A stretch of DNA of 43,354 bases from a virus, in the IMG/VR virus record IMGVR_UViG_3300013120_000156, positions 1-43,354 of that record; one strand, 5' to 3'. The notes below the pieces were generated by a model. The model saw nothing but the letters and a program-made list of their open reading frames with translations, ran no database searches and was not told the origin of the DNA. Positions 4,276 through 5,639 of this stretch are shown here, piece by piece. The stretch's first letter is position 1. Each line of letters opens with the position of its first letter. The position numbers were made by a program, and so were the translations under genes.

Positions 4276-4537
4276 AGTAATGTAGTGCTTTTATATGAGG
4301 AGTGATTGAGTAATAACCTGTCATTTTTGTTCCTAAATTTGATTTTACGTGATAATTTGCATAAATAAAATCATATCTTAGTAAAAAAGGTATTAGCTGT
4401 TTTAAATTACTTATACCAGTAGCTTCTCTTATTTCTCTTTTATTAGCAAACTCAACTTCACATAAGTAATTTAAGACTCTAGTTACTTGATGAAGTGTTC
4501 CACCATGCTTACTATTTTTTTCTTTAATCATCTTCAC
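4259..4537 (-). CDS. Winged-helix-like protein
   Basis: 92 residues. The run VTRVLNYLCEVEFANKREIREATGIS followed later by LKQLIPFLLRYDFIYA has the helix-turn-helix pattern of a small winged-helix DNA-binding protein that would sense or repress a viral promoter. An alternative start is at 4531. It overlaps the HNH gene upstream by 14 bases. Function is inferred from the fold pattern only. Confidence 0.6.
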   Translation of the reverse strand: MKMIKEKNSKHGGTLHQVTRVLNYLCEVEFANKREIREATGISNLKQLIPFLLRYDFIYANYHVKSNLGTKMTGYYSITPHIKALHYYGTKN

Positions 4538-4850: not shown

Positions 4851-5050
4851 TCTTCTGCTCTTAACTGATGACATCTTTTACACAACATTAGTATGTTGTT
4901 AGGTGTGTATTCTCCTCCTTTGTATCCAGGATTGATTCTATGTGGCTCTAAAATACCAATCTGCTTCTCATGCTTATGACACCCTTGACATGTGAATTTT
5001 ACTATTTCTCTTAGTACTTCTTTTTGTTTACTTGATAATTTTGTATTCAT
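4844..5050 (-). CDS. Small HNH protein
   Basis: 68 residues (71 if started at 5059). It carries CQGCHKHE, then PHRINPG and NNILMLCKRCHQL, the minimal zinc-bound HNH finger with a histidine-arginine pair at the catalytic position. It is next to another HNH gene but the two differ in sequence, so this is not a recent duplication. It overlaps the winged-helix gene upstream by about 23 bases. Confidence 0.8.
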   Translation of the reverse strand: MNTKLSSKQKEVLREIVKFTCQGCHKHEKQIGILEPHRINPGYKGGEYTPNNILMLCKRCHQLRAEEW

Positions 5051-5258
5051 AATAAGCATGAGTTGTTTTTTTGTTTGGGTTTTTTTGTTTTTGTTGTTCT
5101 CTAGTTACTAGTCTTCTTTTAACTTCATTAAACTTTAATAATCTATTAAGTCTTGCAGATATTACTGCTTTTGAGTTTTTAAGACTACTATTTATTTCAT
5201 CAATTGACATCCAATTGTCTTTCTTTTTTAATATTTCAATTATTTCTGCTTGTCCCAT
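5028..5258 (-). CDS. Winged-helix protein
   Basis: 76 residues from the ATG at 5258, preceded by a GGGGGGG run at 5269-5275 that may act as ribosome site. The frame is open back to a TTG at 5309, but that TTG is the anticodon of the tRNA-like element, so the shorter start is preferred. QAEIIEILKKKDNWMSIDEINSSLKNSKAVISARLNRL fits a MarR-like or ArsR-like winged helix. It is probably a small transcription regulator. Confidence 0.7.
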   Translation of the reverse strand: MGQAEIIEILKKKDNWMSIDEINSSLKNSKAVISARLNRLLKFNEVKRRLVTREQQKQKNPNKKTTHAYYEYKIIK

Positions 5259-5299
5259 GAGTATAAATCCCCCCCTTTTAAGTTTTTGTTTAAATTGTT

Positions 5300-5367
5300 C
5301 AAGCTCCAAAAGCCTGTGTGTTAGACCACTACACTATACTCTTACGAGCAATGGGATTCGAACCCAT
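5300..5367 (-). tRNA. tRNA-Gln(TTG)-like element in circularly permuted order
   Basis: Read on the minus strand: a perfect T-arm (ATGGG-TTCGAAT-CCCAT, 5367-5351); an acceptor-like hairpin TGCTC-GTAA-GAGTA (5350-5337) closed by a GNRA tetraloop; TA as bases 8-9; a D-arm GTGT-AGTGGTCTA-ACAC (5334-5318) with the GG pair; A26; and an anticodon arm CAGGC-TTTTGGA-GCTTG (5316-5300) with anticodon TTG. The 3' half precedes the 5' half. The acceptor strands are complementary over most positions, so they belong to one molecule. The break is in the variable loop, where ATTGT (5375-5371) can pair with ACAAT (5298-5294); outside this a run of Cs (5390-5383) can pair with a run of Gs (5275-5269). There is no discriminator or CCA, so it may be a tRNA mimic rather than a working tRNA. 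Confidence 0.6.
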
Positions 5368-5396
5368 GTTACAATATTGTCAGGGGGGGGTCAAAT

Positions 5397-5639
5397 TTAA
5401 TTTTGTTTTTTCTGACTATTAAATCTCTCAAGAGAGTTGTTAATACTTTCTAATTGGTCTTCAATGTTTTGAGCTTGAATGTCTTTTTGCTCTATGAAGT
5501 CCTTTAATGCTTCCTCAGCCTTTTCAATTTCCATTTTTAACTGAGTTTCTGTTAATCCGAGTGAAGCTTTTGCATTAATTAGCTTAGCTTTTTTTTCTTC
5601 TAACTCTGCTATAATTTCGTATCTGCTTTTTGTTTCCAT
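5397..5639 (-). CDS. Coiled-coil protein
   Basis: 80 residues, almost wholly charged helix with heptads (AELEEKKAKLINAKASL, then ENIEDQL-like repeats). A GGAGGG ribosome site precedes the ATG. Function unknown; it could be a dimerising structural or anti-host protein. It ends just before the tRNA-like element. Confidence 0.65.
   Translation of the reverse strand: METKSRYEIIAELEEKKAKLINAKASLGLTETQLKMEIEKAEEALKDFIEQKDIQAQNIEDQLESINNSLERFNSQKKQN

What the first reader, a model, noticed from the sequence alone, without database searches (positions are those of the whole stretch)
5300..5367. Circularly permuted tRNA-Gln-like element with GNRA-closed acceptor stem
T-arm, then acceptor hairpin, then D-arm and TTG anticodon arm follow each other on the minus strand. 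All invariant loop bases checked are present (TTC in the T loop, GG in the D loop, T33). The acceptor strands pair but are joined by GTAA, so a mature 3' end is missing. Flanking ATTGT/ACAAT and a C-run/G-run can close the open variable loop. Known permuted tRNA genes have a removable spacer between the halves; here there is none. It may be a tRNA mimic that acts as a decoy, a landing site or an mRNA element between two genes.
Basis: seen in the sequence. Interest (0 to 1): 0.88.

Follow-up and report, generated by a model that had tools for sequence, protein, structure and literature searches.

The report
Viral permuted tRNA-mimic RNA element
A virus, probably of an archaeon, carries a small RNA domain that folds like a glutamine tRNA whose ends have been moved and whose amino-acid arm is sealed by a hairpin; it resembles the tRNA-mimicking part of bacterial Y RNAs, so it probably attracts tRNA-binding proteins and does not decode codons.

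Summary
On the minus strand at 5300-5367, T-arm, 5-bp acceptor hairpin closed by GUAA, U8-A9, D-arm, A26 and a UUG anticodon arm follow each other with every pair formed. No shuffled window (0 of 11,226) reached its score. A covariance model built from 33 other viral elements, window excluded, finds it at 54 bits (E 8e-17). It is not a tRNA gene: no discriminator base, no spacer, no ARAGORN hit. The closest known kind is the circularly permuted tRNA-like module of bacterial Y RNAs (YrlA). I found dozens of such modules in phages, 18 of 46 surveyed records having a Ro60/TROVE gene nearby. The window differs: no TROVE gene, no RF02553 match, a break in the variable loop so that a complete anticodon arm follows the D-arm, a C8/G7 closing stem, and a probably archaeal host. 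It fills the gap between a coiled-coil gene and a winged-helix gene, with an RNA ligase gene 1.5 kb downstream; a 22-kb relative lacks element and ligase. I read it as a tRNA mimic binding tRNA-recognising proteins; cis control of the next gene is the main rival. Function is untested.

The parts
5351..5367 (-). T-arm, 5 bp, loop TTCGAAT
   Evidence: sequence; model R1 positions 1-17; pair probabilities 0.8-0.99
5337..5350 (-). acceptor-like hairpin TGCTC-GTAA-GAGTA, 5 bp with GNRA tetraloop; no discriminator base, no spacer, no free 3' end
   Evidence: sequence; R1 match
5335..5336 (-). U8-A9 equivalents
   Evidence: sequence
5318..5334 (-). D-arm GTGT-AGTGGTCTA-ACAC with A14, G18G19, A21
   Evidence: sequence; R1 match
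5300..5316 (-). anticodon arm CAGGC-TTTTGGA-GCTTG, anticodon UUG (Gln), one base (A26) after the D-arm as in ordinary tRNA
   Evidence: sequence; one search places it downstream of the D-arm
5383..5390 (-). C8 run, 5' strand of the closing stem; begins 6 nt after the stop codon of the coiled-coil gene
5269..5275 (-). G7 run, 3' strand of the closing stem; ends 10 nt before ATG 5258, so it may also serve as Shine-Dalgarno sequence
5397..5639 (-). small coiled-coil protein gene (80 aa) directly upstream; a weak homologue in L364 also precedes a C/G-run-closed T-arm element
   Evidence: 34% over 73 aa, E 1.7e-4 in a small set
5028..5258 (-). winged-helix-like small protein gene directly downstream (weak TFIIE_beta match)
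   Evidence: below curated cut-off; homologue in L515
3089..3727 (-). RNA ligase with intact nucleotidyltransferase motifs (KLHGTN, FGE, VEGIVF, KLR)
   Evidence: PF09414 36.2 bits over cut-off 27; alignment A2

Best explanation
It is a tRNA-mimic RNA domain of the Y-RNA kind: a tRNA fold circularly permuted so that the acceptor end is sealed by a GNRA hairpin and both RNA ends leave from the variable-loop position through a C8/G7 stem. It is transcribed with an early operon between a coiled-coil gene and a winged-helix gene (inferred from orientation and spacing). Most likely it works in trans, as an RNA domain that cannot be charged but presents a tRNA elbow and a Gln(UUG) anticodon arm to tRNA-recognising proteins: a decoy or tether, perhaps held by the neighbouring coiled-coil protein and acting beside the viral RNA ligase when host tRNAs are attacked. 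Shown here: fold signature, membership of a wide viral class of such modules, lack of a tRNA 3' end, position. Inferred: expression, protein partners, decoy or tether action.
For: Arms, spacing and signature bases; 0 of 11,226 shuffles; 54.1 bits with a model from 33 other viral elements. The model's sources belong to Y RNAs: RF02553 matches of 46.6 and 43.5 bits (below gathering) and a TROVE/Ro60 gene over cut-off in 18 of 46 records, about 0.2-1.3 kb from the core. The Y RNA tRNA-like domain is a circular permutation of tRNA and a substrate of TruB and DusA; a competitive-inhibitor role towards an anticodon nuclease was proposed for YrlA. RNA ligase gene 1.5 kb away; close relatives of the ligase often lie beside tRNA or tRNA-like genes (L356, L357, L358, L364, L365). 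The coiled-coil gene and a C/G-run-closed T-arm occur together again in L364, where no ORF of 40 aa or more begins at the G-run.
Against: No TROVE gene in the record, no RF02553 match at E up to 10, no Ro-type terminal stem. No separate promoter or terminator recognised (bacterial-type scan), so a free RNA would have to be processed out of an mRNA. No relative carries a full copy, so conservation of the window's own element could not be tested. The L364 counterpart lacks the capped acceptor and its gene homology is weak.
Confidence: 0.45

Rival explanations
1. Cis-acting translational switch. The C8 run pairs with the G7 run that doubles as Shine-Dalgarno sequence of the winged-helix gene, the tRNA-like domain holding the strands together. 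A ribosome finishing the coiled-coil gene (C-run begins 6 nt after its stop) or a protein bound to the tRNA-like domain opens or keeps the stem, coupling or repressing translation, in the manner of the tRNA-like thrS operator of E. coli (from general knowledge).
For: The stem spans almost the whole 138-nt intergenic gap; G7 ends 10 nt before ATG; stem pairing probability about 0.96; other genes show G-rich Shine-Dalgarno-like sequences; the relative without the element has an ordinary GGAG before the homologous gene.
Against: The C/G-run closure in L364 is not followed by an ORF of 40 aa or more that begins there; a plain hairpin would suffice for coupling and would not explain a complete tRNA mimic; related modules are known as trans-acting RNAs.
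Confidence: 0.3
2. Relic or recombination product: fragments of tRNA genes joined head to tail by deletion between tandem tRNAs, or a decayed permuted tRNA gene, now without function.
For: Tandem tRNAs with short spacers mimic the order and occur among pattern hits (e.g. L193); no relative keeps the full element.
Against: All 19 pairs intact, exact 14-nt capped acceptor without discriminator or CCA remains, D-to-anticodon spacing of one base, 54 bits to a functional class, unique C8/G7 closure.
Confidence: 0.13
3. Permuted tRNA gene that is processed into a functional tRNA-Gln, as in Cyanidioschyzon or Thermofilum.
For: Order 3' part before 5' part; near-complete set of tRNA bases; the probable archaeal host would have tRNA splicing enzymes.
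Against: No spacer, no discriminator base, no mature 3' end, acceptor pairs only 5 of 7; no bulge-helix-bulge seen by inspection at the flanks; ARAGORN finds none, Rfam tRNA only below threshold.
Confidence: 0.04

Closest known systems
Bacterial Y RNAs (YrlA, RF02553), tRNA-like effector module (structure PDB 6CU1)
   Same: Circularly permuted tRNA fold; T-arm, hairpin-capped acceptor, U8-R9 and D-arm in the same order; canonical T- and D-loop bases; ends tied by a terminal stem
   Different: In members with a recognisable anticodon-like arm it lies upstream of the T-arm (break near position 26); in the window it lies downstream of the D-arm (break in the variable loop). No Ro60/TROVE gene, no RF02553 match, different terminal stem (C8/G7), archaeal-type virus
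Permuted tRNA-like elements in tRNA clusters of large phages (found here, e.g. L070, L228, L079)
   Same: Same permuted core; L070 and L228 also have T-A-D-anticodon order
   Different: Closed by a 6-9 bp stem followed by CAGCAA on the 5' side and UGUU on the 3' side (possible pseudoknot); lie among true tRNA genes; acceptor loops often longer
Circularly permuted tRNA genes (Cyanidioschyzon, Thermofilum)
   Same: 3' half precedes 5' half
   Different: Those carry a removable spacer with mature ends and are processed into working tRNAs; here none of this
tRNA-like mRNA operators (thrS of E. coli)
   Same: tRNA-like domain next to a ribosome-binding site
   Different: Not a permuted complete tRNA fold; no evidence of autoregulation here
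Permuted tmRNA (RF04321)
   Same: Permuted tRNA-like RNA
   Different: No tag reading frame, has an anticodon arm, no match here

Membership tests
Bacterial Y RNA (Yrl) | Permuted tRNA-like module: T-arm, capped acceptor, D-arm | tested here: met
   54.1 bits, E 8e-17 with a model built from viral Y-RNA-type elements, window excluded
Bacterial Y RNA (Yrl) | Match to Rfam RF02553 | tested here: not met
   no match at E up to 10; viral relatives L248 and L272 do match, below gathering
Bacterial Y RNA (Yrl) | Ro60/TROVE gene in the neighbourhood | tested here: not met
   0 in the 43-kb record, against 18 of 46 other element-bearing viruses; the record may be incomplete
Bacterial Y RNA (Yrl) | Terminal stem of Ro-binding type | tested here: inconclusive
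   a terminal stem exists (C8/G7) but no Ro-type sequence was seen by inspection
Bacterial Y RNA (Yrl) | Binds Rsr/Ro60 and an effector such as PNPase | not testable with these tools
   biochemistry needed
Permuted tRNA gene | Spacer between halves, mature 5' and 3' ends, joinable halves | tested here: not met
   TGCTC-GTAA-GAGTA leaves no spacer or discriminator
Ordinary tRNA gene | Linear cloverleaf found by tRNA finders | tested here: not met
   ARAGORN 0; Rfam none at gathering; RF00005 19-25 bits, gathering 29
Permuted tmRNA (RF04321) | Covariance match and tag frame | tested here: not met
   no RF04321 match in the window region; the same search finds one in L372

The most novel reading that the evidence does not exclude
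An archaeal virus carries a Ro60-independent, Y-RNA-type tRNA mimic with a complete glutamine anticodon arm and a new break point, partnered with a small coiled-coil protein and an RNA ligase as a counter-defence against tRNA-cleaving nucleases.
Probability: 0.2. Interest if true: 0.85.

Novelty: new variant of a known kind. Interest (0 to 1): 0.6.

Why it matters
Capped, permuted tRNA mimics are known from bacterial Y RNAs that work with Ro60. A version without a detectable Ro60 gene in a probably archaeal virus, with a different break point and an intact anticodon arm, suggests that the module is a portable tRNA decoy or handle used beyond Ro60. The wider set found here in tRNA clusters of large phages, with a covarying stem and CAGCAA/UGUU motifs and no TROVE gene, gives testable candidates for how viruses manipulate tRNA-binding proteins.

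Tried and rejected
T4 stable RNAs C and D: RNA C has a T-arm but neither is permuted. Permuted tRNA gene with spacer: rejected, no spacer or discriminator. Bulge-helix-bulge splicing at the flanks: not seen by inspection. ATTGT/ACAAT helix: no energetic gain. T-A-D-anticodon look-alikes from overlapping tandem tRNAs (L193, and probably L148, L189) recognised by eye and discounted. RF00005 half-match uses TACTCAT over the start codon of the next gene; judged fortuitous. Ligase against solved structures: no relevant match. Relatives of the winged-helix protein in viral contigs: none. Pattern scan for more cases of the L364 kind: only L364's own record. Chance: rejected.

Full report
What is there. 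On the minus strand between the stop codon of a small coiled-coil gene (5397-5639) and the start codon of a winged-helix-like gene (5028-5258) lies a 138-nt gap. It contains, 5' to 3': C8 run (5390-5383), TGACAATATTGTAAC, T-arm (5367-5351), acceptor-like hairpin with GTAA loop (5350-5337), TA, D-arm (5334-5318), A, anticodon arm with UUG (5316-5300), an A-rich stretch, and G7 run (5275-5269). The acceptor hairpin is 14 nt, the sum of two 7-nt acceptor strands with nothing between them, so no mature 3' end can be made.

More than chance. A structural scanner for T-arm, capped acceptor, U8-R9 and D-arm gives the window 15.5; 11,226 dinucleotide-preserving shuffles of the whole window gave 84 weaker hits and none at or above 15.5. 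The anticodon arm and the C/G stem were not used in that test. The two G/C runs are the only ones of length 7 or more in the window.

Known kind. Pattern scans of viral contigs found the same order in dozens of phages (analysed). One scan with a GNAA-capped pattern ran to completion with 41 loci, most of which fold as expected. Two of them match Rfam YrlA below the curated score. A literature check found that the tRNA-like module of bacterial Y RNA is a circular permutation of tRNA (PMC11472068), is modified by TruB and DusA and belongs to Ro60 (Rsr) complexes (PMC8394870). In 18 of 46 element-bearing viral records a TROVE (Ro60) gene passes the family cut-off and lies roughly 0.2-1.3 kb from the RNA core. 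A covariance model from 33 of these elements, window excluded, hits the window at 54.1 bits. The 33 rows had been pre-filtered for pairing by the scanner, so their 100% pairing is by construction; 11 of the 14 pairs nevertheless show changes on both sides.

How the window differs. In the members with a recognisable anticodon-like arm, it usually lies five or so bases upstream of the T-arm, so the break is near position 26. In the window, in L070 (GAT) and in L228 (AAC) the anticodon arm follows the D-arm by one base and the break is in the variable loop. The window has no TROVE gene, no RF02553 match and none of the CAGCAA/UGUU flanks of the large-phage group. Its closing stem is C8/G7, predicted at about 0.96 probability.

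Host and relatives. Terminase relatives at 82-86% are other metagenomic contigs; at 37-50% they include Bacteroidota prophages and phages. Evidence for an archaeal host is indirect: TATA-like octamers peak 20-40 nt upstream of start codons (counted over window, L478, L477, L356, L358, L359 and L362: 13 in those two bins, 8 in the other eight bins together), TTGACA is depleted, ligase relatives include one record with a match to PCNA (just over cut-off) and one with a strong match to MCM (that family also rings in bacterial control genomes), and L356 has tRNAs with 41- and 77-nt inserts in the anticodon loop. The D-arm and UUUGGA anticodon loop resemble archaeal tRNA-Gln (general knowledge, not tested). 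I put an archaeal host at about 75%.

Accessory nature. In relative G041 (82% terminase) the winged-helix homologue directly follows a SWIM-like ORF and neither the coiled-coil gene, the RNA element nor the ligase is present in the syntenic stretch. In L364 (ligase 67%) a weakly similar coiled-coil gene is followed by CCCCCTC ... T-arm ... AATGGTCTA ... GAGGGGG, the closing stem differing by a C-G to T-A change, then by a tRNA-like gene. This hints at a coiled-coil plus RNA cassette, but the L364 element lacks the capped acceptor (model R1 finds only its T-arm, 13 bits) and the protein similarity is weak.

Function. Two readings remain. (1) Trans: an unchargeable tRNA mimic that binds tRNA-recognising proteins, with an RNA ligase encoded nearby; precedent is the Y RNA module and the suggestion that YrlA may inhibit an anticodon nuclease (PMC7790460). 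(2) Cis: the C8/G7 stem masks the likely Shine-Dalgarno G-run of the winged-helix gene; ribosomes ending at the coiled-coil stop, 6 nt before the C-run, could open it. The first is favoured because the same module works in trans elsewhere and because the L364 closure is not followed by an ORF of 40 aa or more that begins there, but the layout fits the second well. Expression and partners are untested.

Limits. The window is a linear viral metagenome record; the homopolymer runs could carry assembly errors. No full-length homologue of the window element was found, so selection on it could not be measured.

Noticed in passing
L002, L004, L061, L070, L079, L113, L130, L142, L152, L177, L205, L227, L228, L241, L247, L265: About 20 permuted tRNA-like elements, many in tRNA clusters of large phages, share a 6-9 bp stem of varying sequence directly followed by CAGCAA on the 5' side and UGUU on the 3' side (possible pseudoknot). 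The records of this group that were tested have no TROVE gene. Possibly an undescribed Ro-less RNA subclass.
   Followed up: partly
L109 around 5573 (minus strand): Permuted tRNA (anticodon CAT) whose acceptor halves are joined by A-CCA-TAGCTAAGT, i.e. with discriminator, CCA and spacer; could be a processable permuted tRNA in a phage.
   Followed up: no
L372 1329-1549 (minus strand): Permuted tmRNA (RF04321, 52 bits, over gathering) in a virus whose terminase is about 50% identical to the window's.
   Followed up: no
L356 4375-4485 and 4611-4755: Two tRNAs with 41- and 77-nt inserts in the anticodon loop just upstream of the RNA ligase gene; a short tRNA-like element apparently without anticodon arm lies between them (near 4524).
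   Followed up: partly
L515 785-985 (minus strand): About 200 nt of non-coding, hairpin-rich sequence directly upstream of a small HNH gene, absent at the same place in the window.
   Followed up: no
L070 4082-4706 and L079 5852-6477: ROOL RNAs in the same tRNA-rich phages that carry permuted tRNA mimics.
   Followed up: no
L364 5400-5640: After the C/G-run-closed T-arm element come a tRNA-like gene and what look by eye like further tRNA-like folds, one with an unusual T-loop.
   Followed up: no
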